DNA of 53,914 nt from positions 1-53,914 of the IMG/VR virus record IMGVR_UViG_3300036791_001299; one strand, given 5' to 3'. The translations under genes and the position numbers were made by a program. The notes under the pieces were generated by a model. That model saw only the letters and a program-made list of their open reading frames with translations. It was not told the DNA's origin and made no database searches. The stretch comes from a virus. Shown in pieces: positions 3,196 to 50,287 of this stretch (position 1 is its first letter; every line of letters starts with the position of its first letter).

Positions 3196-3284
3196 GAGAT
3201 TCCTACTTGTGCCATTGGCACCCACACCGAACCTTGCCTTGCCACACCTAGCCCGACCGTGCCGAGCCCTACCGCGCCCATCTC

Positions 3285-3974
3285 TCATGAAATCCGCACG
3301 TGATGTCCGCGCTCGGCCAGTGTCGCTCCCGGCACGCCCGTGAGCCCGCTGTCGCCGCAGCTGGCGCAGGGTGCATCTGGCTGTTTAAACCTGCCTCCCT
3401 GGCAGGCGAGACACGGCTGTGCTAAAGACTCGCGGACCAGACGGGTGTCGACTATTCGCTCCGCACCCCTGATGGCTGGCGATCCCAGCAATTCGACCAT
3501 CCGTAAATACTCGTCGTACCCGACCTCGATCCGGTACCGAAAAAATTCGCCGGGCAGGAGCTGCTCGTTGACGTCGATCCGTTGCTCTCCGCCATTCGCC
3601 CAGAGCGAGATGGTGGCGCTGCGGCCTTCGAGCCGACGCAATCCGCGCTTTGGTATGGGCAGCAGTTCGAGCACTCGGGCGAGATAGCCGCGCAGTCGTT
3701 CACGCGCGTTCTGGAGGCGCGCTTTGCGCCTGCGGAGACGCTGTTCTTCTTCCTCGGCGAGCTTGACCTGCGACTCCAGATACCGGACCATGTGCGCGGC
3801 GGCGTCCACGCGCTCGGGGATGCGCTCGCCGAGATACTCCGCGATCTCGCGGTCGACATCCGAGGTGTCTTCCTGGCTGTCAATCATTTCCATCTGTAGC
3901 GTGACCAGCTGCGCGAGATCACCAGCCAGCGAGTAGAGTGCCAGCGGTTGTGGTTTATCCTCGGCAGGTGTCAT
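3285..3974 (-). CDS. Siphovirus Gp157-like protein
   Basis: This 229-aa protein matches the Gp157 layout: an N-terminal LYSLAGDLAQLVTL helix, a long charged coiled coil (about residues 60-105, VKLAEEEEQRLRRRKARLQ), then a compact domain with ISLWANGG. The C-terminus adds two CxxC pairs (CLAC and CASC, about residues 187-206), unusual for the family. It lies directly after the Bet/RecT gene with an ATGA overlap, the usual recombination-cluster context. The ATG at 3974 is chosen for that overlap. Its last 17 residues recur in the 37-aa ORF at 1419-1532. Function in the family is not well defined. Confidence 0.7.
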   Translation of the reverse strand: MTPAEDKPQPLALYSLAGDLAQLVTLQMEMIDSQEDTSDVDREIAEYLGERIPERVDAAAHMVRYLESQVKLAEEEEQRLRRRKARLQNARERLRGYLARVLELLPIPKRGLRRLEGRSATISLWANGGEQRIDVNEQLLPGEFFRYRIEVGYDEYLRMVELLGSPAIRGAERIVDTRLVRESLAQPCLACQGGRFKQPDAPCASCGDSGLTGVPGATLAERGHHVRIS

Positions 3975-4918
3975 TGCTGCTCTCCTGAGCGATCCCATAC
4001 TTCCCATTCGTCTGCGGCGGGTGTGGCGGGTGTCTCTGGCACCGGCGCGGCGGGTTCCGGTGCCGGAGCGGCGGCGGCAACGCCAGCCGCCTTCATCTCG
4101 TTGTAAATCTGGCGGGCCAATTCCCGGCTGCGAATCTGATTTGAATGCTTGAGCCCACGGGCCGCGAGAACCTTGTAATAAAGCTCTTCGCCTATCTCTG
4201 ACTTAAGTGCCGCGAAGGCATCCAGCATCACCTTGTAGGCATTCTTCTCCGGCTGCGCGGGGGGTGTGACTAAAGGACCCGGTTGCATCAAGGGCGCGCC
4301 TCCGTCGACGTCCTGGCGGTGCATTTCCTCGGGAACATACATGCCGCCGCACTCGTCGGGGAAGGCCTTGCGCAGAGCACCCGCCTCAGCACATTTGATT
4401 AATTGGTTAGCGGGCATCCTTTTCCACATGGGGACCAAGTCAAAGCCGCCTTCTTTGCGTTTGTACCTGGGCGCGTATTCCTTGAACACGGCAATGGAAT
4501 AAAGCGGAGCCTGAAAGTCCTTGCGGTAGACTCCGACGCGGGCGGCTGCGGGCGGAGTGTCAGCCAGCCAGACTGGCAGCCATCGACCGCTGGCGTCGCA
4601 CCATTCCGGCGGAGTCTGGCCCGCGTATTTGCCACTGCGCTCGGCTTGCAGCCGGAAACCGTCAATGCCGGTTTGAATGGTCATGACATACTTGCCAGCC
4701 TCCTGGTCGTAGCGTTTGATGCAATAGATTTGTTTGGCGAACGGGTCAAGCCCTTTGTGCTTGCAAACCTCAATAAACAGCGAGAATTCGTCGTCGGTGG
4801 TATCCTTGGCGATGGTTTGCTTGAGCAGGTCGAGCTGGTCGCGATTGGGATTGAAACCACGGGGAAGGGTCTCAGCCTTCGGCGTTTCGATAATTTCAGT
4901 TCCAGGTGTCGGTGTCAT
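3971..4918 (-). CDS. bet: Phage recombination protein Bet (RecT/Red-beta family)
   Basis: This 315-aa single-strand annealing protein shows the Bet signature: TDDEFSLFIEVCKHKGLDPF (about residues 41-60), an IYCIKRYD strand, and MTIQTGIDGFRLQAERSG. Such proteins anneal complementary single strands during phage recombination and replication. The last 50 residues are Ala/Pro-rich and acidic, a typical disordered tail. No lambda-like exonuclease is seen beside it; the PD-(D/E)XK protein at 1548-2168 might fill that role (inference). It is coupled to the Gp157-like gene by ATGA. Confidence 0.85.
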   Translation of the reverse strand: MTPTPGTEIIETPKAETLPRGFNPNRDQLDLLKQTIAKDTTDDEFSLFIEVCKHKGLDPFAKQIYCIKRYDQEAGKYVMTIQTGIDGFRLQAERSGKYAGQTPPEWCDASGRWLPVWLADTPPAAARVGVYRKDFQAPLYSIAVFKEYAPRYKRKEGGFDLVPMWKRMPANQLIKCAEAGALRKAFPDECGGMYVPEEMHRQDVDGGAPLMQPGPLVTPPAQPEKNAYKVMLDAFAALKSEIGEELYYKVLAARGLKHSNQIRSRELARQIYNEMKAAGVAAAAPAPEPAAPVPETPATPAADEWEVWDRSGEQQ

Positions 4919-4933
4919 TGTCGTATTCCTCGG

Positions 4934-5389
4934 TTAAAATTGCTCAGTAGGTTTCAATGCCTGCTCAGCGGCTTGGTAGCTGAGACTGGTAGCTGAGACC
5001 AGAGCCATGCGCATAGCGATGGTCATGGCCAGACATTGCTCCACGTTTAAATTCCACTGCCGCACCATAATCTCGACGCGGCCATCGCGCACGTAGAGAG
5101 TGGCGGGAATCCAGGTCATGCCTTCCATCGGCGGTTGCGAGCAGAAGAATTCGATGCGCGTCAATTTGCCGTTCTGCGTCTCCGTAGGCTCGATACGGCA
5201 GAGCACCCGCTTCGCGTCTTTCAACTCGGTCTCGTGCTGCCGGTCGAGGTCGAAGGCGTCGATTACCGAATGGCATTGCTCGCACACCGCGTAGTCCTGA
5301 GAGCTGGGACCCGTTTCAGAGTCGTAGTCGAGGCGTGTCAGCATGCGGAATTCGGACGGCTGGCCGCAGGACGGGCAATTGAGTGTCAT
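4934..5389 (-). CDS. Zinc-ribbon protein whose C-terminus is encoded by a CRISPR-type repeat
   Basis: A 151-aa unknown protein. Its N-terminus is a zinc ribbon (CPSCG at residues 5-9 and CEQC at about 36-39); the middle is beta-rich. The ATG at 5389 overlaps the Xis-like stop (ATGA). The final residues, SLSYQAAEQALKP, are translated from a solitary copy of the CRISPR repeat at 4951-4986, so the natural C-terminus has been replaced or extended by repeat DNA. Position in the recombination operon suggests an early DNA-related role, but no family is recognised. Confidence 0.6.
   Translation of the reverse strand: MTLNCPSCGQPSEFRMLTRLDYDSETGPSSQDYAVCEQCHSVIDAFDLDRQHETELKDAKRVLCRIEPTETQNGKLTRIEFFCSQPPMEGMTWIPATLYVRDGRVEIMVRQWNLNVEQCLAMTIAMRMALVSATSLSYQAAEQALKPTEQF
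4951..4986 (+). repeat. Solitary CRISPR-type repeat far from the array
   Basis: These 36 bases match the array repeat at 32 of 36 positions by eye, including the CTCAG and CTGAG stem arms and the GAGAC end. Read in crRNA sense it lies on the plus strand, antisense to the gene it overlaps. Its last 13 bases (TGGTAGCTGAGAC) are tandemly repeated at 4987-4999. It lies some 33 kb from the array and overlaps the 3-prime end of the zinc-ribbon gene. No promoter for it is evident. Confidence 0.85.
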
Positions 5390-7226: not shown

Positions 7227-8051
7227 CTACCCTACATCGCACCAGAAACGGTAATCGTCAAAAGCCGAATCCATCCCCGGCCAGTTGGTGTACACCTTGA
7301 GCACCTGCACATTGGGCAGACTGGTCACGGTGGTAACCGGCCCGGGCTCGAGCTGGATCATGTTGGTCGGACTGCCGGTGGCCGTAACCAGCGCCGGGTC
7401 GTACAACGGCACCGGGACCGCCGCTGCGGCATTCGCGATGCTTCCGCCCGACCACCATGGCAGATATCCGTCCGGATCGTACGCGATGCTGCCGGTCGCG
7501 CCGAGCACCCGGCAGAAGTCGTATACGTCGTTATTCGACTGGGTGAGGGCGCGAATGAAGCCGATATTCGTCAGCGAAAAACCGGAGCCCTGGTAGTAAA
7601 ACGAGAGGTAAGCCGACAGCGAAGCGTAAATGAGCTTGATGTATTCGACCGACGTGGCCGGGTCCGAATGGCTATTAAGGAAGATGCCGTTGACGTGGGT
7701 GGCATCCACCACCTTGACCTTGGCGATCTCCACATTGGCCGTACCGTAACCAATGAGAATATAGTTGTCGCCGGTCTGGTCGAAAAACAGAGTGCTCGAA
7801 ATCTGGACATCCTGCGGCGAAGGACTGGCTGTGATGGCCGCCAGGAGGGGCAGGGGATTGCCTCCGCCCCGCAAGTCGGCGATGAAGGGCGCGCTCATCG
7901 CTTGCTTGATGGAGAACGACACATAGCTGCTGCCGGACGCCGTTAAGGTCGCAACATTGGCCATGACAAAGGGGGTGGGATGCGCGGTCTCGCCGAGAAC
8001 GCTCCCGGCGACTCCTCCTACTACGTGGGCCAGATACGGGTTAAGAGCCAT
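7227..8051 (-). CDS. Probable virion-associated protein downstream of the fibre
   Basis: A 274-aa protein with short Gly/Ser/Ala-rich beta-prone segments, few charged residues, and many aromatic and small residues (e.g. YVSFSIKQAM, FYYQGSGFSL). Its composition and position directly after the long fibre suggest a structural or fibre-associated protein. No catalytic motif or signal peptide is visible. The start at 8051 follows the fibre stop by 21 bp. Confidence 0.5.
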   Translation of the reverse strand: MALNPYLAHVVGGVAGSVLGETAHPTPFVMANVATLTASGSSYVSFSIKQAMSAPFIADLRGGGNPLPLLAAITASPSPQDVQISSTLFFDQTGDNYILIGYGTANVEIAKVKVVDATHVNGIFLNSHSDPATSVEYIKLIYASLSAYLSFYYQGSGFSLTNIGFIRALTQSNNDVYDFCRVLGATGSIAYDPDGYLPWWSGGSIANAAAAVPVPLYDPALVTATGSPTNMIQLEPGPVTTVTSLPNVQVLKVYTNWPGMDSAFDDYRFWCDVG

Positions 8052-16156: not shown

Positions 16157-19100
16157 TTATCCGCTGATGGTACCGGGCTCGTTGAGCATGAGCGCTTGAT
16201 TGACTCTGCCGTTCGACGCATACATGGCGTTTGCGTACTGCGTCGAGACGACGTCCGGAGTGACCACCTGCCCGGTCATGAATCTGGCCGCATCCTGGCC
16301 GCCGACATTGAGCGAGAGCGAGAGCGGCATATTGCCGCCGGGATTGGCGAGCTGCGTGGTGGAAGCGCCGCCGTAGACCGGCAGATTGGAGCTGTAGCTA
16401 TAGCCCTGGCCGTACTGATACGTGGCCTGCTGATACATTCTGCCGCCGGACTCGACCAGAGACGCGCCATGAGCTTCGTTGGCGCTCTGCTTGAAGAGGC
16501 TGCCCTGCCCGGTGCCCGCCGCATAGAGACCCAGCATGTGGCGCACCTCGGGCGAGCGCACCGCGAGCGAGACATGCCCGGCATAGCTCTGCTTCGCCAT
16601 GGCGACGATCTGATCGGCGACCCCGTTGTCAATGTGAATGCCGTAAACCTGCTGCACGAGACGGATGGCTTCATGGCGCGGCGACTCCGCGCCGGTGAGC
16701 ACCTCAAGGCCGCCCGCCAGTGCTCCAGCCGCAGCGCCAATGCCTGCGCCGATAGCCGTACCGACGCCCGGCATGATCATGGTGCCGATCCCGGCCCCGG
16801 TTAGCGCTCCGCCGCCCATCGACTCAAAGAAACCGCCTGCGGTGCCTCGGCGCTGTCCCGCGAGACCCGCCATACCGAGCATCAACCCCGTGGATAATTC
16901 GGCTTGCCCGGCAGCTTTGCTGGTCAATGCCCCAGCTAGTTTGCCACCGGTCGCCAATTCCACTAAACCCGGCGGCAGTTTAACCGGCGAAACCGGTAAG
17001 CCATCCGCACCGATCATTCCACCACCGCCGCCGCCGCCGCCACCACCCGCAGGTCGCCCGAATCCCCGCAGGATGCCTCCTATAAGGCCGCCGCCACCAC
17101 CCGCAGGCTGCCCGAATCCCCGCAGGATGCCTCCTATAAGGCCGCCACCGCCACCGCCTCCGCTATACCCCATGGAGCCTCCGCCGCCGGGCGATGCGAT
17201 GGATGCTGTCCCGAAGCCCGGGAAGATGCTGCCCGCGCCATAGTATCCGGTGCCGGATTCCGCCGGTGCCGTAGCGCCTCCGCCACCGCCGCCGTAAAGC
17301 AGACCTGTCGGTAACGAAATACCGCTACGAAGGACTCCGCCGCCGATAGTGCCGCCACCACTGCCAAACAAAGTAGCCAAGGCTCCGCCACCACCGCCAC
17401 CGAACAGATGAGGCGCAAAAGCCGAAAGGGGGCCGCCCCCGCCACCACCAACTCCGCCAGCTCCACCTGCGGAAACGCCGGTCACGTGTACCGGAACAGA
17501 ACCCTCTGATGTCAATTTCACGTCCGCCAGCTTCCCGTGGAATCCGCCGAACATGCCGTGGAGCATGCCCGCGATACCGCCGGTGCCCTCCGCGCCGAAA
17601 ATAGTGGGCCGCATCAACTGTGCCGCGGTTTCACTCAACCCGCCGATAATCGGCCTCATGGTGGCTTGCCTGACGGTCTGCCCCAGCTGCGAACCAAACT
17701 TGCCGGGGTGTGTGAAGAGCGTCTCGAATAGCGGTTCCAGGGTCTTGGCAATTTCCTCAGTCTGCTGCTTCTGCATTTCCATCAGTTTGACCGTGCTATC
17801 CCAATGCGCGTCGTCGATCTGCCGCTGATATTCGCCCTGCGCTTTGACACCTTCGATCTCGAGTTTATTCAGATCGATGGCTCTTTTTTCCTTGTCAGCG
17901 GTCTGCTGTTTGCTTACCCTGTAGGTTTCTTCGACCAGAATTTTCTGTTCCGCCAGTTGCTGTTGAGTTTCCGCGCGGCCCATTCCGGCTTCCTGGATAC
18001 GCAAGCCTTCGATGCCAGCAAGGGTACCGGGCCGTCCGCTCTTGAGGCCCTCGGCCTGGAGCATTTCAATCTGCCGGTGCAGCATGTCACGCTTGCGCCT
18101 GCGGCCTTCGGAAAACACTGCCTGATCCAGTTGACGCTCCCGGTCCTTCGCCGCCTGCGCGGCGTTTTTGGCCTGATCGTCGCGCTTGGCTTCGAGCGCA
18201 CTCTGCTCTGTGGTTGCTTTGGTCCTGTCTTCGGCAATGCGGCGTTCCAGTTCACGCTGGGCCTTGGCTTGCGCTTCCTCGATGGTGGCTGCATCCATTT
18301 TGGCCTTCTTCATCTCCTCGATACGGCCCATCTCATCGCGGTAGGCCATGGTCGCGAGGACTACTTGGTTGCGGTACTCGGCCTGGATGTCGACCTCGCT
18401 GTACTCCTCGCCAGCAGCCTTTCGTTTGGCCTGGAAGATGGCGTAGCTGGAACGGATAGCGCTCTCATCCCGTGAGCGCTGCGTTTCATCCCGGGTCGCC
18501 GCCCGCATCTGCGCCTGCTTCTGGTTGAAGGCTTCGATATTGGCAGCCTGGATCTGATCGATGATCGCGATGTTTTGCCGGTGGTTTCGCAGGATGGCGG
18601 GATGCTCTTTCTCTTCTTCGCGGAGCAGCCGGATGCGTTCGGTATGTGCGGCATTGATTTTGTCCATGCCGTACAACTCTTTTTCCTGCGCTTTCGCCAG
18701 TTCCTCCCGCAGGCGATTGGTGTAGGCCAGCGCTTCGTTCAGGTCCTTGAGACCGGCTTTTTGGGCATTGAGTATGTCGTTTTTCGCCTGATCTTTGGAC
18801 CCCTTCGTTATCTTTGTCTGCAGATCGGTTGACTTTTCGATATATTCGATCTCGGCGTAGCGCGCATCGATATCCTGCTGCCGGATGATTTCGCCATGGA
18901 TTGGCGTAATCCCTGGCGGAAGCGTCATGCCCCGGGTGTCGGTAACGTCTCCCGGCATACCTGTGCGCGGGCCCTTTGCCCGACGCCAAAAGCCTGTCAT
19001 CTCCTCGCCGGTTTTTCCCTCAAAGGGGTCTCCTAGCTGAGCCGCCCGCCAGAATGCAAGATTGTGTGCTTCGGCTTCCCGCTGGTCAATGACTCGCTGT

Positions 19101-36148: not shown

Positions 36149-38206
36149 TTACCGGCGGCGGAATCCGCCCCGCTGCGCGCCCAGACCCGGGTAGGCTGGC
36201 TGCGCAGTCACCGGTGCCGTCCAGGCGGCTTGAGTGGGCTGTGGCACCGGTGCCGGACGTGGCGGCGCTGCGCCTTCGATGGCAATAGCCGCCTCGAAAT
36301 GACGCCAGTGGTCTTCCCCAAACCGGTCCGCGCCCACAATCGAATAGGCCGCCCGGTTGTACACCGCGAGATCGATGGGCTCATTGCGCGGCGCGCGCTT
36401 CTCGTAGACGACGTCGCCGTTGGGCTTGACGATCTTCACCTCGGAGCATAAGCCTTCGAAGTACGTCATGTCATACATCGGCCAGTGATAACAACCGGTC
36501 ACCGGCGTATCGTCCACCGTAGGCACCGCGTGCCGCATCAAATCAAACAATTCAGCCTTGCAGCAGTTCACCCCGACACCCACAATGCGCGTCCCCTGCC
36601 GCTTGCGCGCCGCATCTTCCTTCGAAATGCTGGCAATGACCCGCAGCTGGTCCGGCGTACCCTTGATAGGCACCACCGTGCGCGCCGCGATCAACTTAAT
36701 ACCTTGCGGTCCGTAATGCAGCTGATGCCCCCGCCGCGTAAACTCGTATACCGGCTTCGGGTTTTTGCCGGTGTCGATGGTCATGCAAAGGATCGGCAGA
36801 CTCTTACCCGAGTTGTGCGCCCACTCGCGTCCCAATAACTCATACAGCTGGTCCCACAATTCCCGCGCGCTCACCGGCAACTCCTGGCCATTCTCGCTGA
36901 ACGCTTGCAGCACCCAGTAGCCCATCGACCAGTTTTCGCGGTTTCTACCCCAGGCCTTCACTTCAACCTCGAGACGCGCCGGATGCTCCTGGACGTCAAC
37001 CGCCGCCGTCAGGAACAGACCCCGCTGCGGCACCACCGCAGTATCCCCGAACGGATAAGCCTCCCGCCGCGCAAACAACAGATCCTTCTCCGGCGCTTCG
37101 CCTTCTTCCACCCATTCCTCGGCGAGCACCGTATTGATAAACGTTTTGAGACTCTGCCGGTCGTCTTTGGCATTCAGAAACTGCTGCGAAATGGACGCCG
37201 CCGACTTCCAGCTCGGTGGCACATACAAGTGGTTCAGCCAGAATCCAGCCGTGCGATTGCCCGCCTGCGGACGATCCGCGCGCCACTCGACATAGTGATC
37301 CACCGCATCCCAGCGCTCCCGCTCCGTCCACGGCTTATCGCAACTGATGCAGTAATAGCGCGCCGTCGCCGCCTGCAGCTCCCGCGCCACGGCGGTAGAC
37401 CACTTGACGTGATACCCGTCCCGGTCGCGGAATCGCAACACCTGCATGGTGCCGCAATGCGGACACGGCACGTAGGGGCGCCGCTGGTCGGACAACGCAA
37501 ATGCCCTGCCGATCCGGCTGCGCCCGGCCACCGTCGGACTGCACGCCAGGATACGCTTGCGGCGCGTCCCGAAGGTCATGGCGCGTTCCCACGCAAGGTC
37601 GATAGGATCACCTTCTCCCTGACGCTCCTGGCTGCCGCCGACATCCTGGTCGTACTTGTCGATCTCATCGCACACCAGATACCGGATGGTGTGCTGCGCC
37701 AGATCCACCGGCGTGCGCGCACTGATGATCAGCAGGTTGCCGCCCGGGAAGGTCTTGCTCTGGATGGTATTCGAGCCATCGTGGATGCCGTCCAGCACCT
37801 TATTGCGCAGGATCTGGCAATCCCGCACCATGGGCATCAACCGGCGCTTCGAGAAATCGCGCGCGGCGTCTTTTTTGGGCTCGACCAATAAGATGGGCCC
37901 CGGCTCCTCGGCGATCCAATACGCAATCGCCAGCATGATCGCGAGACTCTTGATCACCTGGGTGGACGACATGATCACCACGGTCTCGATGGTGTCGTCC
38001 GTTATGGCGTCGAGAATGCCCCGCTGCCAGCCGTACAACCGCAAGGGACCGGTCGACGAGCTGTACTCCGGCGACAGCACCACGTTGGCTTCCGACCATT
38101 GCGAAAGCGGCACCCGGGGACGCACCCGGAAGATCTCAGAGTGCAAGCTCTGAAATACCGGCGGCGGCCAGTCCCAGCCTGGAACTAAGAAAGATGGCGT
38201 TTCCAT
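36149..38206 (-). CDS. Terminase large subunit (GpA family)
   Basis: A 685-aa packaging ATPase-nuclease. The GpA-type ATPase shows the Walker A-like STQVIKSLA segment (residues about 81-89, Lys86) and Walker B LVCDEID (178-183). A CPHCG/CISC zinc pair (about residues 240 and 290) and the nuclease part (IDTGKN, later DLAVYNRAAYS) follow. The last 45 residues are Pro/Ala-rich. It is separated from the small terminase by the CRISPR locus, which is unusual since TerS and TerL are normally adjacent. Confidence 0.85.
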   Translation of the reverse strand: METPSFLVPGWDWPPPVFQSLHSEIFRVRPRVPLSQWSEANVVLSPEYSSSTGPLRLYGWQRGILDAITDDTIETVVIMSSTQVIKSLAIMLAIAYWIAEEPGPILLVEPKKDAARDFSKRRLMPMVRDCQILRNKVLDGIHDGSNTIQSKTFPGGNLLIISARTPVDLAQHTIRYLVCDEIDKYDQDVGGSQERQGEGDPIDLAWERAMTFGTRRKRILACSPTVAGRSRIGRAFALSDQRRPYVPCPHCGTMQVLRFRDRDGYHVKWSTAVARELQAATARYYCISCDKPWTERERWDAVDHYVEWRADRPQAGNRTAGFWLNHLYVPPSWKSAASISQQFLNAKDDRQSLKTFINTVLAEEWVEEGEAPEKDLLFARREAYPFGDTAVVPQRGLFLTAAVDVQEHPARLEVEVKAWGRNRENWSMGYWVLQAFSENGQELPVSARELWDQLYELLGREWAHNSGKSLPILCMTIDTGKNPKPVYEFTRRGHQLHYGPQGIKLIAARTVVPIKGTPDQLRVIASISKEDAARKRQGTRIVGVGVNCCKAELFDLMRHAVPTVDDTPVTGCYHWPMYDMTYFEGLCSEVKIVKPNGDVVYEKRAPRNEPIDLAVYNRAAYSIVGADRFGEDHWRHFEAAIAIEGAAPPRPAPVPQPTQAAWTAPVTAQPAYPGLGAQRGGFRRR

Positions 38207-38343: not shown

Positions 38344-38585
38344 ATTTTAAAGTCTCACCTATCAAGCCGGTGAACAGGCATTGCGTAGCTTTTCTCCATA
38401 ATAATTTCTCCGTAGGTCTCACCAACCAAGCCGGTGAACAGGCATTGCGACTTTAGTGCATGATAGTCTCAGTTACCAGGCCACCAAGCAGGCATTGCGT
38501 CTCCCTCATCCTCGTCCCGGCTACCAAAGCCGCCGAGCAGGCATTGCTTGGTTCCGGCCCCATCTCGACTAGAGCCTTCTGCGTT

Positions 38586-39263
38586 TCAGCTACCAAGCCG
38601 CTGAACAGGCATTGTGGACTCCTCGGCAATCGCGCGCTGCGCCAATACTAACAGGTCCACGCTGTCAGGCAGCGCCGCGGCCCGTACTGCCACATATGCT
38701 GCCTCCGCCACCCTCCTCATTACCGTAATCTCTATTTGCTGGCACGCCGCGCAGGCCGCACACGTGGCGCACCACGCTGCTTTGGCCGCTCCCCTTGCCT
38801 CCTTCGAGCGATGCTGAACTGCCCGGACTGATGCCGCCATCCCGGCTGCGACTGCCTTTTCGTGAGAACGATCCGTACCGTTTAGCCACCCATACGCCCA
38901 GCCCACAAAGGACGGATCGCGGTCCACCGCCATCGCGCACATAACCGCAAACCGCACCCTCGCGCTTGCCGCAACCTCCGGCATCTCGATGCGCCGGATG
39001 GTGGTCAGCGACCTACACCCACACTTGAGTTGTCCGTCACGCAGTCCTATTTCGCCCTCAGCCTCCCAGAGCAGTATGTTTCGGGGATCAACGTATATTG
39101 CCGGGATCAATAAAGCCGCCAGGAGCGGATGCTCGTGAGCATGTATCCACCCGTCCGTAAAAAGCTCCTTGCCGGTGCCGGTCGCGGCGTGGGTGACATT
39201 CTCCCCCCACTCGATCCCGTCTCCCGACTGGTCATTGGCGTCAGCCACTTTATAGAGGGTCAT
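38586..39263 (-). CDS. DUF7666-like phage protein inserted in the CRISPR trailer
   Basis: A 225-aa protein with the family-like order WGENVTHAATGTGK, GWIHAHEHPLLAALL, LWEAEGEIGLRDG, then an Ala/Cys-rich helical C-terminus (ARGAAKAAWCATCAACAACQ). Its last residues, MPVQRLGS, are encoded by a CRISPR repeat, and an inverted repeat copy lies 63 bp upstream of its start, so it is flanked by inverted CRISPR repeats. It resembles hypothetical phage proteins, not Cas proteins. Why it sits in the array is unknown. Confidence 0.6.
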   Translation of the reverse strand: MTLYKVADANDQSGDGIEWGENVTHAATGTGKELFTDGWIHAHEHPLLAALLIPAIYVDPRNILLWEAEGEIGLRDGQLKCGCRSLTTIRRIEMPEVAASARVRFAVMCAMAVDRDPSFVGWAYGWLNGTDRSHEKAVAAGMAASVRAVQHRSKEARGAAKAAWCATCAACAACQQIEITVMRRVAEAAYVAVRAAALPDSVDLLVLAQRAIAEESTMPVQRLGS

Positions 39264-39325
39264 TTGGTTTTTACCTTACCTTTCCGGGTAGACTAATGCG
39301 CACGGGCTTACTGTGCTCGGCGCTG

Positions 39326-39362
39326 GTCGGCAATGCCTGTTCAGTGGCTTGGTTACTGAGGC
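39326..39362 (+). repeat. Inverted CRISPR-type repeat upstream of the cargo gene
   Basis: A 37-bp copy of the repeat (one inserted base) in crRNA sense on the plus strand, opposite to the array. With the copy at 38583-38618 it flanks the cargo gene in inverted orientation. Confidence 0.8.
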
Positions 39363-41382
39363 CGTCAACACACATCGCGCGTCCCGGCTACCAAGCCGCC
39401 GGGCAGGCACCTCGGATTACTTCACGGATGTCTCAGCTACTAGGCCGCCGAGCAGGCGTTGCGACAGACCATAAGATCTTCGCGTCACACCAACTAAGCC
39501 GGTGAACAGGCATTGCAACGCGGAATGCGACGTGCGTTGGCGTCCACCCGAAGAGTCGCGTCTCAGCTACCAAGCCGCTGAGCAGGCACCGCGACTATCG
39601 CTAAAGGCTAATGTCCCAGCTACCAAGCCGCTGAACAGGCGTTGCAACGCAGCTTGCTGACCCAGATCAAGACCTCCAGATCCATCCCGTCTCAGTAACT
39701 AAGCCACCGAGCAGGCGTTGCGACCCCATGTCTCTATCAACGGACGTCACGACAAACAAGTCTCAGCTACCAAGCCGCTGAACAGGCGTTGCGACGCACG
39801 GCGGCGGCGATCCGCACCAGGAAGTCCACGTCTCAGCTACCAAGCCACCGAGCAGGCGTTGCGACACCACGAAAGGATCGGGAGCAATGACGTCTCAGTA
39901 ACCAAGCCACTGAGCAGGCGTTGCGACGGAGGGTGGCGTGATCGCTCATGAAACCAGTATGCGCTGTCTCAGCTACCAAGCCACTGAGCAGGCGTTGCGA
40001 CGCTGCATCCTTCGGTTGTTCCCATCGCACCTGCCACGTCTCAGCTACCAAGCCACTGAGCAGGCGTTGCGACGATTTAAACCCTGGTATATGCTCATGC
40101 ATAATAGTCGGGTCTCAGCTACCAAGCCACTGAGCAGGCGTTGCGACTGCCAGCCATTTTTCGAGCGCCGCCGTTGGGACGCGTCTCAGCTACCAAGCCA
40201 CTGAGCAGGCGTTGCGACGATTTAAACCCTGGTATATGCTCATGCATAATAGTCGGGTCTCAGCTACCAAGCCACTGAGCAGGCGTTGCGACGCTGTTAA
40301 AGTAGCGCGGTGCCGTTTGTGCGGTTAGTTGTCTCAGTAACCAAGCCACTGAGCAGGCGTTGCGACCACGTCGACAGATCTCTTTCACGGCGATGACGTC
40401 CTGTCTCAGCTACCAAGCCACTGAGCAGGCGTTGCGACGGGGTCGAGTATGACGCCGATATTCAGCCTCGAGCCGTTGTCTCAGCTACCAAGCCACTGAG
40501 CAGGCGTTGCGACGTTCGAAAACTGGCCGGAGATCGCCACCACTGACCCTGTCTCAGCTACCAAGCCACTGAGCAGGCGTTGCGACAGGAGCCGCCCTTG
40601 CAGGCGGATGATCTGGCGCTTGTCTCAGCTACCAAGCCACTGAGCAGGCGTTGCGACACTGCGATCCGGTGCGACCGGCGGGTATCAGCAGTAGTCTCAG
40701 CTACCAAGCCACTGAGCAGGCGTTGCGACGTTGTATTTCGGACAATACTATCCGTTGGAATTTGTTGTCTCAGCTACCAAGCCACTGAGCAGGCGTTGCG
40801 ACATCCGTGGTCCGCGTACTGCGGGTGCCGACATCGTCGTCTCAGCTACCAAGCCACTGAGCAGGCGTTGCGACGTCCAGGTCAAAATCATCAAGCACGG
40901 ACGGTTTAGCGTCTCAGCTACCAAGCCACTGAGCAGGCGTTGCGACCTAAACCCCGGAAAAAGTTCGAAGCACCCTACCCTGTCTCAGCTACCAAGCCAC
41001 TGAGCAGGCGTTGCGACGCGGTGACATCGCCGAGCGCCGCGCCCCAGATGTAGAGTCTCAGCTACCAAGCCACTGAGCAGGCGTTGCGACACGGAAACTG
41101 GTCGGGCTGGAGGAAATCGAGCAGTAGGGGTCTCAGCTACCAAGCCACTGAGCAGGCGTTGCGACCGCGGTCCGGCCTCCGGTCTCCTCTTTCTCGGAGC
41201 GTCTCAGCTACCAAGCCACTGAGCAGGCGTTGCGACAACCCGGACCTGCTCGCTCGATACCGGAACCGTCTTGTCTCAGCTACCAAGCCACTGAGCAGGC
41301 GTTGCGACCATTCGGCAGGGGTAGATACCCCCCAACTACCTACGTCTCAGCTACCAAGCCACTGAGCAGGCGTTGCGACAGC

Positions 41383-43191
41383 CTAGTCGCCAGCTGCCAT
41401 GTTTTCATCAGGTTCCAGACCGGTTTGCGAGCGGTCTGGTTTTGCGCCCTCTTCCACCTCCGTAACTCGTTGTTTCTTATCAGATGCCACCTCTGGCATC
41501 GCCCCACCGCTCGCACGCATCTGCCCCCACGCCTTCAACAGATTCTTCGCCGCATTCAAATCCTGGTCCCACAACATCCCGCACCCACCGCACCGGTGCA
41601 TGATACTCGCCGCTTGATCCCACTCATGCGCATACCCGCACGCATGGCACTCCCGCGTCGTATACGGCGCAGGCAGCTCAACCACCGCCACCCCTTCCCG
41701 GCTGCACGCACTCTTAATCGCCAGCCGCAACGTCCCCGTACTGGCCATAAACCGGTACGTCCCCGACCCCGTGACAACCGCCGCCGACTCCGGCTGAGGA
41801 TGCTCCACCACCGAGCGCAAATCAAATTCCTCCACCACCACCACGTCATAATCCCGCGCCAGCCCTGCCGCGAAATCCCGATACCGCGCCAGCCTCCGGC
41901 CCGTCATCTGATGCTGCAGATTCCGCCACCAGTCCGTCAAATGCAGAAACTGCTTGCGCCACCGGACCGCCTCCGCAAACATTCCCTCATCACCCGGCAG
42001 CCGGTTATCCGCCCACCAGCGGATCAACGCCGCCACACGTTCCCCGGACCGCCACTGATACAGATACGCCGACCGCGTCCGCCACTCCTCCGCCAACTCC
42101 CGCTGGCCCAGCCACTCCACTAGCTCCGGGTGAAACTGCTCCCGGCTCTTATCGCAGATCGACCGCAGATCCGCGACCTTCTGGAACTGCGCGATATCGG
42201 AGCCCTCAATCCGCAATTCACCATGGCCGCCCAGCGAGTCAGCCCAGTATCCCACCCGCACCGCGCCCTCCGGCTTCAATCGCCAGCCCAGATCGAGCGC
42301 CAATACCCGGCTGCCGGTCTTCTCACTAGGCCGCGGCAAGCTGATGCTCACATTCAGCTGCCAGTGCGTCTTCCCCGCCAGGATGCGGCGGCTGGCGCTT
42401 ACACTCTTGATACGCGCCTCCGGAGGCAGATCCCGATGGTAAACAATCGGAATCTCAACCCACACCGGCGACCGATCCGCATTGCTGCCGATCCGCACGC
42501 GCGCATACCGCCACTTCCGGCCCGGCGTCGGTGGATCCACCTGGAACAGCGTGTTGGTGCCGCCTACGCAGTCGCTGACGCACGCGCCACCCTGCACCTG
42601 CGCGGTAACCGTCCCTTCGCCGCGGAAGCCGTGATAACGCAGCTCGCTATCCCCCTTGCCCTTGCGCGCCAGCTGACGCGCCGTCTCCGCCCGCTGAATG
42701 ATGTCGTTATAGGAGCCCCAATAGAGCCCCAGACCCGCCGCCGCTTGCCGCGCCTTAATCGTGCGCCGGTACGCCCGCTCCGTATTGGCATCCAGCTGCT
42801 GCCGCTTGGCCTCATGCCGCGATTCCTTGGTCGCCTTCCGCTCCGCGATCAACGGCTTTCGCTCCGCCTCCGCCGCCGCAATGCGCTCCGGCAGATCACC
42901 AAGATCCGCGCCCTTGCGTTTACGCGCGGACTGGCGAGCCTTCTTGATCAACTCCCGGCACAAACTGATCTCCGCCGACAGCTCATCGATCCGCGTTTGC
43001 TGGTCATCCCGCATGATCCGCCGGTACGCCGTATCGCGCGTACGCTCGATGGTGACCAGGACATTCCATAGCCGGTTGCCCAGCCGCATCTGTCCTCGAG
43101 CCGAATCTTCATTGATCACCGGTGCGATCCGCGCCGGTACCGTGCCATAGGAGTACACCCGGCTGGCTGTATCGTCTGTTTTACGCTGCAT
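41383..43191 (-). CDS. cas12m: Compact type V effector, Cas12m-like (V-M, formerly V-U1)
   Basis: A 602-aa protein from ATG 43191. Residues about 40-165 are helical and basic. About 154-205 carry GLGLYWGSYNDII and LRYHGFRGEGTV, motifs that I recall as shared with Cas12m. The C-terminal RuvC has a D-E-D set: Asp300 in LALDLGW, Glu454 in VVVVEEFDL and Asp544 in WDQDLN. A zinc finger lies between the last two (CHAC at 515-518, CGGC at 534-537). As I remember the best-studied Cas12m, the RuvC site is altered and it binds DNA without cutting; here the acidic residues are complete, so cleavage is plausible (inference). TnpB is the main alternative, but no IS ends are seen and the stop is three bases from an array. 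Size is normal for Cas12m. Confidence 0.8.
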   Translation of the reverse strand: MQRKTDDTASRVYSYGTVPARIAPVINEDSARGQMRLGNRLWNVLVTIERTRDTAYRRIMRDDQQTRIDELSAEISLCRELIKKARQSARKRKGADLGDLPERIAAAEAERKPLIAERKATKESRHEAKRQQLDANTERAYRRTIKARQAAAGLGLYWGSYNDIIQRAETARQLARKGKGDSELRYHGFRGEGTVTAQVQGGACVSDCVGGTNTLFQVDPPTPGRKWRYARVRIGSNADRSPVWVEIPIVYHRDLPPEARIKSVSASRRILAGKTHWQLNVSISLPRPSEKTGSRVLALDLGWRLKPEGAVRVGYWADSLGGHGELRIEGSDIAQFQKVADLRSICDKSREQFHPELVEWLGQRELAEEWRTRSAYLYQWRSGERVAALIRWWADNRLPGDEGMFAEAVRWRKQFLHLTDWWRNLQHQMTGRRLARYRDFAAGLARDYDVVVVEEFDLRSVVEHPQPESAAVVTGSGTYRFMASTGTLRLAIKSACSREGVAVVELPAPYTTRECHACGYAHEWDQAASIMHRCGGCGMLWDQDLNAAKNLLKAWGQMRASGGAMPEVASDKKQRVTEVEEGAKPDRSQTGLEPDENMAAGD

Positions 43192-43250
43192 GCTTAAAAT
43201 TGTATTTAAAGGTGGGCCAAATTGCGAAAACAACGGCGGGTGGTTTTGTT

Positions 43251-43709
43251 TTATCGTCGCGGCTCGAAAACGATAACCTGGACGGACTCCATCGAGCCAA
43301 GCGCCTGCTCTATTTCCGGACGCACATCACCCCAGCTCAGCCCGCCATTGCCGCATCCCAGCGCAGGTATTGCTAGGGACCGAATATTTTCCTCTTCAAT
43401 CACACGGCGAAGATCCCGCAGTCCGTCGACAATCCATTTCAGCTGGGAGGGATGCCGCCAGTGCTCCTTCGTGGGAAAGTTGATCACCCACTGCGGACCG
43501 TGAAGGTCGTTGGTCTTCGTAACAAACATGCGCCCGATTCTGACTTCATTGCGGTTGCACGCTAATACGTAGGCGCGATAATTCTTCGGATAAGCATATC
43601 TGAATTTGAACGCAATCCCCGCGCCCATCGTGCCGACCGTGTTCACGGTATTGACCAGCGCTTCCACTGGCTCTCTCAAGAGATCCCCGTCTACCCGAAA
43701 TGTGATCAT
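43251..43709 (-). CDS. DarG-like macro-domain ADP-ribosyl-hydrolase
   Basis: A 152-aa single-domain protein. It has the ADP-ribose-binding loop pattern NTVNTVGTMGAGIAFKF (residues 20-36), then NFPTKEHWRHPSQ and AIPALGCGNGGLSW, characteristic of the DarG/TARG1-type macro domain that removes ADP-ribose from DNA thymidines. The C-terminal DarG region is absent. Start overlaps TerS stop (ATGA). Context next to a CRISPR effector and terminase suggests protection of phage DNA against DarT-like toxins (inference). Confidence 0.75.
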   Translation of the reverse strand: MITFRVDGDLLREPVEALVNTVNTVGTMGAGIAFKFRYAYPKNYRAYVLACNRNEVRIGRMFVTKTNDLHGPQWVINFPTKEHWRHPSQLKWIVDGLRDLRRVIEEENIRSLAIPALGCGNGGLSWGDVRPEIEQALGSMESVQVIVFEPRR

Positions 43710-44248
43710 GCCACCTTCTGTGCGTCGAGATCGGCGTTGAGTATCCGGTTAATGTTTTCCCACTTCGCCAGTACCCGCAGCATGGCGGCCTCCAGGACAG
43801 CGCGGATCTTCAGCGGCTCGGTCTCGGACGCCAGCGAGTCAGCCAGCTCGGAAGGCAGCCTCAGCAATTCATCGCGCCCATCGACCAGGAACTTTGCCGC
43901 CCACCGCGACACATAGCCGACCGGCAACAATTCCCCGCGCCGCACCATATTCTCAATCTCTTGCTTCTCGGCGAGCGCCCTCGCCCGGCGCAGCTTCGCG
44001 GACTCCAGCGCATCGGTACGCTCCGCCGCCGCGATCACCATCTCGTATTCCGAGCGCGGAGTCTCTTTCTCCGCCACCGCCTTCTCCGGAATAGGTGGCA
44101 CCGGCGTTGTACCATGCCGCTGCGCCGCAAACGCACGTATCTGCTCGACCGTCTTGCCCGCCCGCATCATATTCGATACCGTCTTGGGCGGCAGATTCAC
44201 ATCGCGCGCGAGCGAATTAACGCCTACATAGGTGACCCGTTGCATCAT
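43706..44248 (-). CDS. Terminase small subunit (Nu1-like)
   Basis: A 180-aa protein with an N-terminal HTH (GVNSLARDVNLPPKTVSNMM), a Pro-rich linker, and helical dimerisation region ending in LEAAMLRVLAKWENINRILN. The layout matches Nu1-type DNA-packaging proteins that recognise the pac/cos site and recruit TerL. It is the second gene of the leftward packaging block and separated from terL by the CRISPR locus. Start ATG 44248 or 44245. Confidence 0.7.
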   Translation of the reverse strand: MMQRVTYVGVNSLARDVNLPPKTVSNMMRAGKTVEQIRAFAAQRHGTTPVPPIPEKAVAEKETPRSEYEMVIAAAERTDALESAKLRRARALAEKQEIENMVRRGELLPVGYVSRWAAKFLVDGRDELLRLPSELADSLASETEPLKIRAVLEAAMLRVLAKWENINRILNADLDAQKVA

Positions 44249-46634: not shown

Positions 46635-46664
46635 AAACCCACGCTAAACTAGCGTGGGTTTTTT
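46635..46664 (+). terminator. Intrinsic terminator of the Gp88 block
   Basis: A perfect 12-bp stem (AAACCCACGCTA / TAGCGTGGGTTT) with a 3-nt loop and a T-run (46659-46664). It closes the plus-strand block that begins at 45270. Confidence 0.9.
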
Positions 46665-46669
46665 AGTTT

Positions 46670-46825
46670 GCGGTCGGCAGCCGTGCTGGCGGTCGGCAGC
46701 CGTGCTGGCGGTCGGCAGCCGTGCTGTGCGGTCGGCAGCCGTGCTGTGCGGTCGGCAGCCGTGCTGTGCGGTCGGCAGCCGTGCTGTGCGGTCGGCAGCC
46801 GTGCTGTGCGGTCGGCAGCCGTGCT
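46670..46825 (+). repeat. Eight GC-rich ~19/20-bp tandem repeats
   Basis: Units of the form GCGGTCGGCAGCCGTGCTG (19-20 bp) occur eight times directly after the terminator. No coding or regulatory function is seen; frames through them are shadows. Confidence 0.85.
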
Positions 46826-47147: not shown

Positions 47148-47375
47148 GAAGGAAAGGCGAAAACGCATGTGAAAAGGGGTCTTGGCGAAATAGTAAGGGG
47201 TCCCGGAAAATTTGAAAATTTCAGGAAAATTCTGGCCCGGCATTTTTTCCCGGCCAAAAAAGGGGTCCCCGGCTGGGCCGCCGTTCCCGGCAACACGCAT
47301 CCCTTGTTGACAAAAACTGCTCTCCTACACGATACTCATGTGTACAAGGCGGCGGTCACTGACTGCCAGCCTTAA
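47148..47375 (+). repeat. 228-bp direct repeat, copy A
   Basis: Near-identical to 49087-49314 except for a ~40-bp variable window in the middle. It carries a TTGACA promoter. A 68-codon frame (from GTG 47169) is open in both copies but overlaps the promoter, so it is not called a gene. Downstream of this copy is the 47606-48565 gene. Confidence 0.9.
47307..47336 (+). promoter_or_regulatory. Sigma70-type promoter, copy A
   Basis: TTGACA (47307-47312), 18 bp, then GATACT (47331-47336). It reads toward the 47606 gene, giving a leader of about 260 nt. Confidence 0.55.
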
Positions 47376-47605
47376 TAGTTGAGACTCCACCGGAGTCCAG
47401 GAAGCAGGTCATCGACCTTTGAGTATCAAACCCACCTTGACGCCGCGCAATCCCGCAGTCGACCATCCCCGAATAAGCTCATCTCCCGTCGTCCACCACC
47501 GTTAAAGCCTAAAGCTCTTGACCGGCGGTGGTGATGACAGCACGGCATTGGTTTCGACCAGTGTCATGCTGCCCGCATCGCGGGAGAAGAGAGTTAACAC
47601 ACCAA
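47376..47605 (+). other. Structured 5-prime leader of the 47.6 kb gene
   Basis: A non-coding leader with a GACTCC/GGAGTC hairpin (near 47385-47399), a CACCACCG/CGGTGGTG pairing across a 23-nt loop, and a TAACACACCAA start-leader just before the ATG. It starts with TTAATAGTTGAGAC, which may be an internally deleted form of the CRISPR repeat found after copy B. Confidence 0.45.
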
Positions 47606-48834: not shown

Positions 48835-48849
48835 GTTCGTGGAGCCGTG

Positions 48850-49064
48850 GTGCCCGTGGTGGTGTCGGCGTGCCCGCGGTGGCATCGGCGTGTCCGCGGT
48901 GAGCATCGGCGTGCCCGCGGTGGCATCGGCGTGCCCGTGGTGGTGTCGGCGTGCCCGCGGTGGTGTCGGCGTGCCCGCGGTGGCATCGGCGTGTCCGCGG
49001 TGAGCATCGGCGTGCCCGCGGTGGCATCGGCGTGCCCGTGGTGGTGTCGGCGTGCCCGCGGTGG
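48850..49064 (+). repeat. Eleven GC-rich 20/21-bp tandem repeats, higher-order pattern
   Basis: Units like TGCCCGCGGTGGCATCGGCG repeat about eleven times (the last partial). Three unit variants follow the same order twice (A-B-C-B-A), so an about 100-bp block was itself duplicated. It directly follows a terminator, as at 46670. Confidence 0.85.
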
Positions 49065-49086
49065 AGCACGTTAAGAGTCCGAGGTT

Positions 49087-49314
49087 GAAGGAAAGGCGAA
49101 AACGCATGTGAAAAGGGGTCTTGGCGAAATAGTAAGGGGTCCCGGAAAATTTGAAAAATCCCAGGAAAAACCGGCCCTGGAAAATTTCCCGGCCAAAAAA
49201 GGGGTCCCCGGCTGGGCCGCCGTTCCCGGCAACACGCATCCCTTGTTGACAAAAACTGCTCTCCTACACGATACTCATGTGTACAAGGCGGCGGTCACTG
49301 ACTGCCAGCCTTAA
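49087..49314 (+). repeat. 228-bp direct repeat, copy B
   Basis: Second copy of 47148-47375, 1939 bp away. The flanking order terminator, GC-rich tandem repeats, 228-bp unit is the same for both copies. Copy B ends five bases before a solitary CRISPR repeat. Confidence 0.9.
49246..49275 (+). promoter_or_regulatory. Sigma70-type promoter, copy B, reading into a solitary CRISPR repeat
   Basis: TTGACA (49246-49251), 18 bp, GATACT (49270-49275). Transcripts would cross the CRISPR repeat at 49319-49354 in crRNA sense and continue antisense to the 49322-50287 gene. Confidence 0.55.
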
Positions 49315-49318
49315 GCCG

Positions 49319-49354
49319 GTCTTAATGCCCGTTCAGTGGCTTGGTAGCTGAGAC
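49319..49354 (+). repeat. Solitary CRISPR-type repeat at the end of a gene
   Basis: Matches the array repeat at about 31 of 36 positions, retaining the TCAG...CTGAG stem and GAGAC end. It is in crRNA sense on the plus strand, about 44 bp downstream of the copy B -10 box. It encodes, on the other strand, the last residues (GVSATKPLNGH) of the 49322-50287 gene. Confidence 0.85.
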
Positions 49355-50287
49355 CCCTATCTTAATTCGGATCTCGCGTGGAGCCGGTGTATTGCCGCGT
49401 GGACCGCGCACAGTTTGCGGCGACCAGAATACGCCATGCAGTTTGCCAAACAAGCCACGGCCTTCGCGATAGTCGCGGAAGTGGCCGCGGCAGATATGGA
49501 GCGACTTCTGGATGCTGCCGCCGGGATCATGCGACCGGCCTTCGCGGCGAAGAATCTGTTTCAGCGGCTCGATCACCAGCGTCTTCGGCACGACCGGCTT
49601 AACACCGTGGTTGCGCTCGTACTTTTTGGCGAGTTTGGGCGGCACCGGACCGTCGACCACCGCCACGTTTTTGCAATGCAGAAATGAGATGGCGAGCAAT
49701 GCCGGATGCAAGTAAGTGATGAAATTGTGCATCTCGTTTTTATAGTCGTCCGCGCAGTAAATCACCATTGCGGGTTGCTGCAGCAGGTGTCCATCAGCAT
49801 CGATAAACAGCACAATTGAGCCGATGGGTCCGGTTGCCGTGACACTGCGGAAACCGTAATCGTGAAATTGCTCGCAGTGCAGAATCCACCGCGTGCCGTC
49901 CGGAATCGGCATGGCTTTACGCACATGGTCCGGGTTGGCGACGATGCAAAGCGCGCCTTGACGACCGTTAGGCATGAACGCCGTCACGTCGGTGTCGCCT
50001 TTCTCTTTCGAGTGGATACGCCGGGGCATTTTACACTCCAGCCAAAACATCGGATAGGGTGGTGCTAAATTCGGGAAATCATCCCGCAGATCCCAATACT
50101 CCTGGTCGCTCGAATAGTAATAATCAGCAACGTTGTCGATTAGTAGCACCGGCAGCTGCGGGTCGTGTAGGCATGTCCACACACGAGCGCCCAGCTCATT
50201 CCAGCGCTCTTGAAGCTGCGGCGCGATAAACCACGGCATGGCGATTTTGGCTCCAGGTGCGCGGATGTCGTCGATTAAACGCGGCAT
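49322..50287 (-). CDS. Hypothetical protein ending in CRISPR repeat
   Basis: A 321-aa protein. The C-terminal part contains the ordered motif KSLHICRGHFRDY, GLFGKLHGVFW, SPQTVRG, a pattern I associate with unassigned phage proteins. The final residues come from the solitary CRISPR repeat. It is the last gene of the leftward early cluster that begins at 53388. No catalytic class is claimed. Confidence 0.6.
   Translation of the reverse strand: MPRLIDDIRAPGAKIAMPWFIAPQLQERWNELGARVWTCLHDPQLPVLLIDNVADYYYSSDQEYWDLRDDFPNLAPPYPMFWLECKMPRRIHSKEKGDTDVTAFMPNGRQGALCIVANPDHVRKAMPIPDGTRWILHCEQFHDYGFRSVTATGPIGSIVLFIDADGHLLQQPAMVIYCADDYKNEMHNFITYLHPALLAISFLHCKNVAVVDGPVPPKLAKKYERNHGVKPVVPKTLVIEPLKQILRREGRSHDPGGSIQKSLHICRGHFRDYREGRGLFGKLHGVFWSPQTVRGPRGNTPAPREIRIKIGVSATKPLNGH

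What the first reader, a model, noticed from the sequence alone, without database searches (positions are those of the whole stretch)
49246..49400. Promoter-driven solitary CRISPR repeat: single-guide RNA candidate
A TTGACA/GATACT promoter reads plus-strand through a 36-nt repeat in crRNA sense at 49319-49354. The sequence from 49355 on (CCCTATCTTAATTCGG...) would act as a single natural spacer, giving a solo crRNA distinct from the array, perhaps for host or self gene control.
Basis: partly seen in the sequence, partly recalled or inferred. Interest (0 to 1): 0.75.

Follow-up and report, generated by a model that had tools for sequence, protein, structure and literature searches.

The report
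Stray CRISPR repeat at gene's end
A phage that carries its own non-cutting CRISPR protein (Cas12m) also has a single stray CRISPR repeat behind a promoter-like sequence; the repeat is real and its RNA fold looks intact, but the 'spacer' after it is just the tail of an ordinary gene read backwards, so a dedicated guide RNA is possible but unproven.

Summary
The solitary repeat at 49319-49354(+) is real (31/36 matches to the array repeat; profile E 1e-10). The effector is a phage Cas12m (subtype V-M, 41383-43233, minus). Its array follows it on the same strand, so the solitary copy is in crRNA sense, not a tracrRNA anti-repeat. All nine scaffold pairs are kept. The TTGACA-18-GATACT site is one of five sites of that quality in the genome. 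Promoter and leader hairpin are duplicated at 47.3 kb, where they run into a 10-nt repeat remnant, and the two copies stop matching at the repeat's 3' end.

The 'natural spacer' is not an acquired spacer. It is the antisense of the last codons of gene 49322-50287(-). All 13 viral homologues end at or within five codons of this point without a repeat; here the gene reads into the repeat. No target was found: none with a TTN PAM in this genome, none in the relatives searched, no exact IMG/VR match.

Ectopic repeats recur in this phage, its relative and other V-M loci. Most likely this is one that arose by recombination. If transcribed, its RNA would occupy Cas12m as a decoy rather than act as a programmed host-gene guide. 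Function is unproven; a neutral relic is nearly as likely.

The parts
49319..49354 (+). Solitary (ectopic) type V-M CRISPR repeat in crRNA sense
   Evidence: 31/36 to array consensus, last 22 nt identical; nhmmer E 1.3e-10; all 9 scaffold pairs formed
49355..49374 (+). Would-be 20-nt guide CCCTATCTTAATTCGGATCT; antisense of the C-terminal codons of gene 49322-50287
   Evidence: translation and 13 homologues; no target found
49246..49275 (+). Promoter-like site TTGACA-18-GATACT
49285..49312 (+). Predicted strong hairpin between promoter and repeat (also in the 47.3 kb copy)
49322..50287 (-). Conserved phage gene (phrog_20769, unknown function) whose reading frame runs into the repeat and stops inside it (..REIRIKI-GVSATKPLNGH*)
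49087..49314 (+). Second copy of a 228-nt duplicated cassette carrying promoter and leader hairpin
   Evidence: 94% identical to 47148-47375, last ~120 nt identical
47148..47375 (+). First copy of the cassette
47376..47385 (+). Remnant of the repeat 3' end (TAGTTGAGAC) after the first cassette copy
   Evidence: pairwise alignment with a 30-nt gap
41383..43233 (-). cas12m (subtype V-M effector, RuvC D314-E468-D558)
   Evidence: PADLOC Cas12u1 E 4.7e-107; PDB 23vw Cas12m E 9.7e-89
39560..41379 (-). Main CRISPR array downstream of cas12m
38352..39519 (-). Old, degenerate part of the array, broken up by gene 38586-39263
38583..38618 (-). Repeat copy containing the stop codon of gene 38586-39263
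39327..39362 (+). Ectopic repeat in the orientation opposite to the array
4951..4986 (+). Second ectopic repeat at the 3' end of a minus-strand gene (4934-5389), followed by a 13-nt partial repeat at 4987-4999
4912..4940 (+). Promoter-like site (GTGTCA-17-TAAAAT, 9/12) upstream of the 4951 repeat

Best explanation
This is an ectopic copy of the phage's own V-M CRISPR repeat. A cassette of promoter, leader hairpin and repeat exists twice (47.3 and 49.3 kb). The 49.3 kb copy is joined to the 3' end of a conserved minus-strand gene, whose stop codon it has replaced (junction shown; recombination as the route inferred). If the plus-strand promoter is active (inferred), the RNA carries an intact Cas12m handle followed by about 17-20 nt of antisense gene tail. 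Cas12m would bind and trim it as it does a crRNA (inferred from characterised Cas12m proteins). At its own locus this guide is preceded by GAC rather than a TTN PAM, and no other target was found, so the most likely effect is a non-targeting crRNA or decoy that competes with array crRNAs for Cas12m, expressed independently of the late (terminase) operon that holds cas12m and the array.
For: Repeat identity and sense; all nine scaffold pairs kept, with covariation across 32 copies including ectopic ones: 98.6% of pair cells formed, 20 cells changed on both sides against 6.1 in shuffles; cassette duplication ending at the repeat/spacer boundary; promoter among the five best genome-wide; two of 14 ectopic repeats have promoter-like sites upstream against 0.25 expected; 13 of 13 homologues show the gene ends at or within five codons of the junction without a repeat; ectopic repeats also in relative G001 and in V-M loci L051, L052, L055, L048 and L046; non-targeting crRNAs can reduce interference (shown for type I-F, PMC10651486); Cas12m needs only a crRNA (PMC11013384, PMC10442227).
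Against: No transcript data. The host and its sigma factor are unknown. Of 14 ectopic copies only two have a promoter-like site, so most are not promoter-driven. The 47.3 kb copy has lost most of its repeat, so the cassette can decay. Scaffold integrity of this one copy is not itself significant (P 0.19 under random substitution) and may be inherited from the array.
Confidence: 0.42

Rival explanations
1. Neutral relic: the repeat was copied to this site by recombination (perhaps helped by the phage RecT-like annealing protein) and persists because a short tail added to the gene end does no harm. The promoter-like sequence belongs to the duplicated cassette and serves another purpose.
For: Ectopic repeats are scattered in this phage and in G001 in both orientations, often at gene 3' ends, where insertion is tolerated; the 47.3 kb copy is truncated; the spacer is ordinary coding DNA and has no target; a RecT-like gene is present at 3971-4918.
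Against: Nine of nine scaffold pairs kept; cassette homology ends at the repeat boundary; a good promoter lies 73 nt upstream.
Confidence: 0.38
2. Programmed solo guide (first reader, extended): the RNA directs Cas12m to repress a specific host or competitor gene, in the way TldR, scaRNA or CreR do. In the competitor version the guide comes from the gene tail and would hit close homologues in related phages.
For: Cas12m proteins block transcription by binding (PMC10442227, PMC11013384); orientation and scaffold fit; the array lies in the late operon while this unit has its own promoter-like site.
Against: No target: best TTN-PAM site in the genome has a 4-nt seed and 9/17 matches, below random guides; the 13 known homologues match the guide at only 6-11 of 17 positions; no exact IMG/VR match.
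Confidence: 0.13
3. The functional strand is the minus strand: the mRNA of gene 49322-50287 ends in the reverse complement of the repeat, which could pair with crRNAs (a sponge) or act as a 3'-end structure or terminator with the neighbouring hairpin.
For: The gene stop codon lies inside the repeat; 4951-4986 has the same arrangement; a strong hairpin follows.
Against: In relative G001 three of four ectopic copies are in the same sense as the gene they adjoin; V-M systems use no tracrRNA (PMC11013384).
Confidence: 0.07

Closest known systems
Viral solitary repeat units / RNA anti-CRISPRs (Racrs; PMC10651486)
   Same: Single CRISPR repeat in a viral genome, downstream of a predicted promoter within 250 bp, structure kept
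   Different: Racrs and SRUs mimic a host repeat and are usually found without cas genes; here the phage carries the matching Cas12m and array itself; inhibition untested
CreR / CreA ectopic crRNA-like RNAs (types I and V-A; PMC12737573, PMC9458426)
   Same: Ectopic, diverged repeat with its own promoter that can load a CRISPR effector
   Different: No partial match to the cas12m promoter or to any TTN-PAM site above chance; no toxin gene recognised beside it; subtype V-M and in a phage
TldR phage-encoded RNA-guided repressors (PMC13418256)
   Same: Phage-encoded RNA-guided transcription factor (TnpB relative, from my own knowledge nuclease-dead and single-guide)
   Different: TldR guides have a known host target (flagellin genes); none was found here, and Cas12m has a full CRISPR array
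Subtype V-M CRISPR-Cas12m (MsCas12m, MmCas12m2, GoCas12m)
   Same: Effector, array placement and repeat fold
   Different: Ectopic solitary repeats are not mentioned in the passages of the two V-M papers read here

Membership tests
CRISPR-Cas subtype V-M (Cas12m) | Single Cas12m effector | tested here: met
   Cas12u1/Cas12m profile and PDB matches; D-E-D RuvC residues align with MsCas12m D274
CRISPR-Cas subtype V-M (Cas12m) | Array next to cas12m with repeats folding as pseudoknot plus stem and ending in C(-1) | tested here: met
CRISPR-Cas subtype V-M (Cas12m) | No tracrRNA; the solitary repeat is not an anti-repeat | tested here: met
   The plus-strand copy has the same sense as the array crRNA; an anti-repeat exists only on the opposite strand
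Racr / viral solitary repeat unit | Solitary repeat in a viral genome with a predicted promoter within 250 bp upstream | tested here: met
   Virus record; promoter-like site 73 nt upstream
Racr / viral solitary repeat unit | Usually not associated with cas genes; mimics a host repeat | tested here: not met
   cas12m and array lie in the same genome; host unknown
Racr / viral solitary repeat unit | Inhibits the effector | not testable with these tools
   Needs an interference assay
CreR | Guide partly complementary to the cas promoter next to a PAM | tested here: not met
   No TTN site in the genome scores above random guides
CreTA | Adjacent toxin gene repressed by the RNA | not tested
   No toxin family turned up in the searches, but small ORFs and toxic RNAs were not assessed
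CRISPR mini-array / single acquired spacer | Spacer acquired from foreign DNA | tested here: not met
   The sequence is the antisense of the resident conserved gene tail

The most novel reading that the evidence does not exclude
Phage V-M systems maintain a set of ectopic repeats seeded at gene ends, some with their own promoters, which turn pieces of the phage's own genes into Cas12m guides. Lacking a PAM at their own locus, such guides would spare the phage but silence near-identical genes in competing related phages.
Probability: 0.08. Interest if true: 0.8.

Novelty: new variant of a known kind. Interest (0 to 1): 0.42.

Why it matters
Solitary repeats in phages are known as RNA anti-CRISPRs aimed at the host. 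Here they recur in phages that carry the matching, probably non-cutting effector themselves. That makes it directly testable whether phages use ectopic repeats to tune or retarget their own Cas12m, and how CRISPR repeats come to be joined to gene ends.

Tried and rejected
The 685-aa ORF 36149-38206, first considered as the effector by its size and position, is terminase large subunit gpA. tracrRNA reading: rejected by orientation. Self-targeting and CreR-type autorepression: no site above random. Target in relatives of the adjacent gene: 6-11 of 17 matches only; array and solitary spacers against ~1.15 Mb of fetched loci gave only chance matches. Array spacers against phage GenBank: none. Exact guide in IMG/VR: none. 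Promoter cassette in other viral contigs: none. Homologues of gene 4934-5389, sought to date the second ectopic insertion: none found. The solitary spacer shares CCCTA with an array spacer (sp41130); with about 22 spacers a 5-nt match has roughly a 2% chance (my estimate), noted but not relied on. A first pair count contained one row with six mistyped unpaired bases and was replaced. In one search two G001 rows (L020 2038 and 1957) were out of register and are not used.

Full report
What the window is. The window is a whole 53,914-base virus record with phage head, portal, terminase and RecT-like genes. The CRISPR effector is the minus-strand gene 41383-43233. It matches Cas12m (V-U1, now V-M) profiles and solved Cas12m structures (23vw E 9.7e-89; MmCas12m2 8hhl E 1.2e-23). 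Its RuvC residues D314, E468 and D558 align with the D-E-D of MsCas12m. D-E-D Cas12m proteins were shown to bind DNA without cutting it (PMC11013384), and Cas12m2 silences transcription by binding (PMC10442227), so this one probably silences too (inference). cas12m and its array lie between a small-terminase match (43706-44248) and the large terminase (36149-38206), all on the minus strand, so they probably share a late operon (inference).

Orientation. The array (39560-41379) starts 4 nt after the cas12m stop on the same strand, and its far end degenerates. Nearly all viral and plasmid relatives show cas12m followed by a same-strand array whose repeats mostly end in ..GAC. The repeat at 49319-49354 on the plus strand is therefore in crRNA sense.

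The repeat itself. It differs from the array consensus at positions 4, 5, 8, 12 and 14 only. In MmCas12m2 the first seven repeat nucleotides are disordered and the scaffold is made of a pseudoknot, a stem, a G-A pair and a read-out C(-1) (PMC10442227). The corresponding elements here (GCC 9-11 with GGC 20-22, stem 14-19 with 29-34, G13, A35, C36) are all kept. Across 32 copies from this phage and relatives, 98.6% of pair cells form, with 20 two-sided changes against 6.1 in shuffles. So the fold has been under selection in this repeat family. For the 49319 copy alone, keeping all pairs is not significant (P 0.19), and selection may have acted before it left the array.

The promoter. TTGACA-18-GATACT is real. 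At 9/12 such sites are no more common here than chance, but at 10/12 there are five in the genome, two of them this one and its duplicate. A cassette of 228 nt is present at 47148-47375 and 49087-49314, with the last ~120 nt identical, including promoter and a strong leader hairpin. After a 30-nt gap the 47.3 kb copy continues with TAGTTGAGAC, the repeat's 3' end with one change, and then the two copies diverge at the repeat/spacer boundary. Outside known repeats this 10-mer with at most one mismatch occurs only four times on both strands of the genome, so its position here is unlikely to be chance.

The 'spacer'. Read on the minus strand, 49355 onward is ..CGA ATT AAG ATA GGG, the codons for R-I-K-I-G of gene 49322-50287. 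The G001 homologue (50% identical) ends ..PPRDYEVKV*. Thirteen viral homologues end at or within five codons of that point, followed by ordinary downstream sequence and no repeat. In the window the frame continues into the repeat (VSATKPLNGH*). So the repeat is joined to the gene end and has replaced its stop codon; the 'spacer' is resident coding sequence.

Targets. The guide has no second site in the genome; with a TTN PAM its best site scores below the average random guide; the homologous gene tails match at 6-11 of 17 positions; there is no exact IMG/VR match and no hit in the fetched relatives. The host is unknown and was not searched.

Not alone. The window has further ectopic copies at 4951-4986(+), 39327-39362(+) and 38583-38618(-); two of these lie in or at a gene's 3' end. 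The 4951 copy also has a promoter-like site 39 nt upstream. Relative G001 (61 kb, Cas12m 51% identical) has ectopic copies at L020:1955-1990, 2036-2071 and 3228-3263 and L021:10536-10571, next to gene ends or between genes. More distant V-M loci have them too: L051 (three), L052 (one, directly after a stop codon), and L055 and L048 in the cas12m 5' leader. A cas12m search of the 12 other contigs that carry the gene-49322 homologue found none, and none of them has a significant repeat match.

Conclusion. Shown: a genuine ectopic V-M repeat in crRNA sense with an intact scaffold, behind a duplicated promoter-like cassette, fused to the end of a conserved gene. Inferred: transcription, loading of Cas12m and a decoy effect. 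Not supported: an acquired spacer or a defined regulatory target. Closest known kinds are viral solitary repeat units/Racrs and CreR-type ectopic crRNAs; the membership tests give no full match to either. Overall confidence in the decoy reading is 0.42, with a neutral relic at 0.38.

Noticed in passing
L055:7818-7854 and L048:9399-9470: Nitrospirae MAG and a viral contig carry one and two V-M repeats in the 5' leader just upstream of cas12m itself, suggesting that Cas12m may process or repress its own mRNA.
   Followed up: partly
L051:4449-4483, 7387-7421, 17212-17246: Three ectopic repeats in one viral V-M locus; at 17212 the 26-nt scaffold core is intact while the 5' nine bases have diverged, and at 4449 the repeat lies inside a small ORF.
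   Followed up: partly
L020:1955-2071 (genome G001): Tandem duplication of a gene tail plus repeat, giving a repeat-spacer-repeat unit whose spacer is a diverged copy of the phage's own gene end.
   Followed up: partly
38352-39533: The old end of the array is broken up by gene 38586-39263, flanked by repeats in opposite orientations (38583-38618 minus, 39327-39362 plus), like a cassette between inverted repeats.
   Followed up: no
40074-40111 and 40219-40256: Two identical spacers in the array, from a segmental duplication.
   Followed up: no
46660-46825 and 48839-49074: Two blocks of ~20-nt tandem repeats (GCGGTCGGCAGCCGTGCTGT and GTGCCCGCGGTGGCATCGGC) in the non-coding region near the duplicated cassette; purpose unknown, perhaps origin- or partition-related.
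   Followed up: no
43251-43709: Macro-domain protein encoded directly upstream of cas12m in the same operon.
   Followed up: no
L045:11915-12735 and 18085-18720: Viral V-M locus with two blocks of related repeats in opposite orientations, one directly downstream of cas12m and one about 6 kb further on.
   Followed up: no
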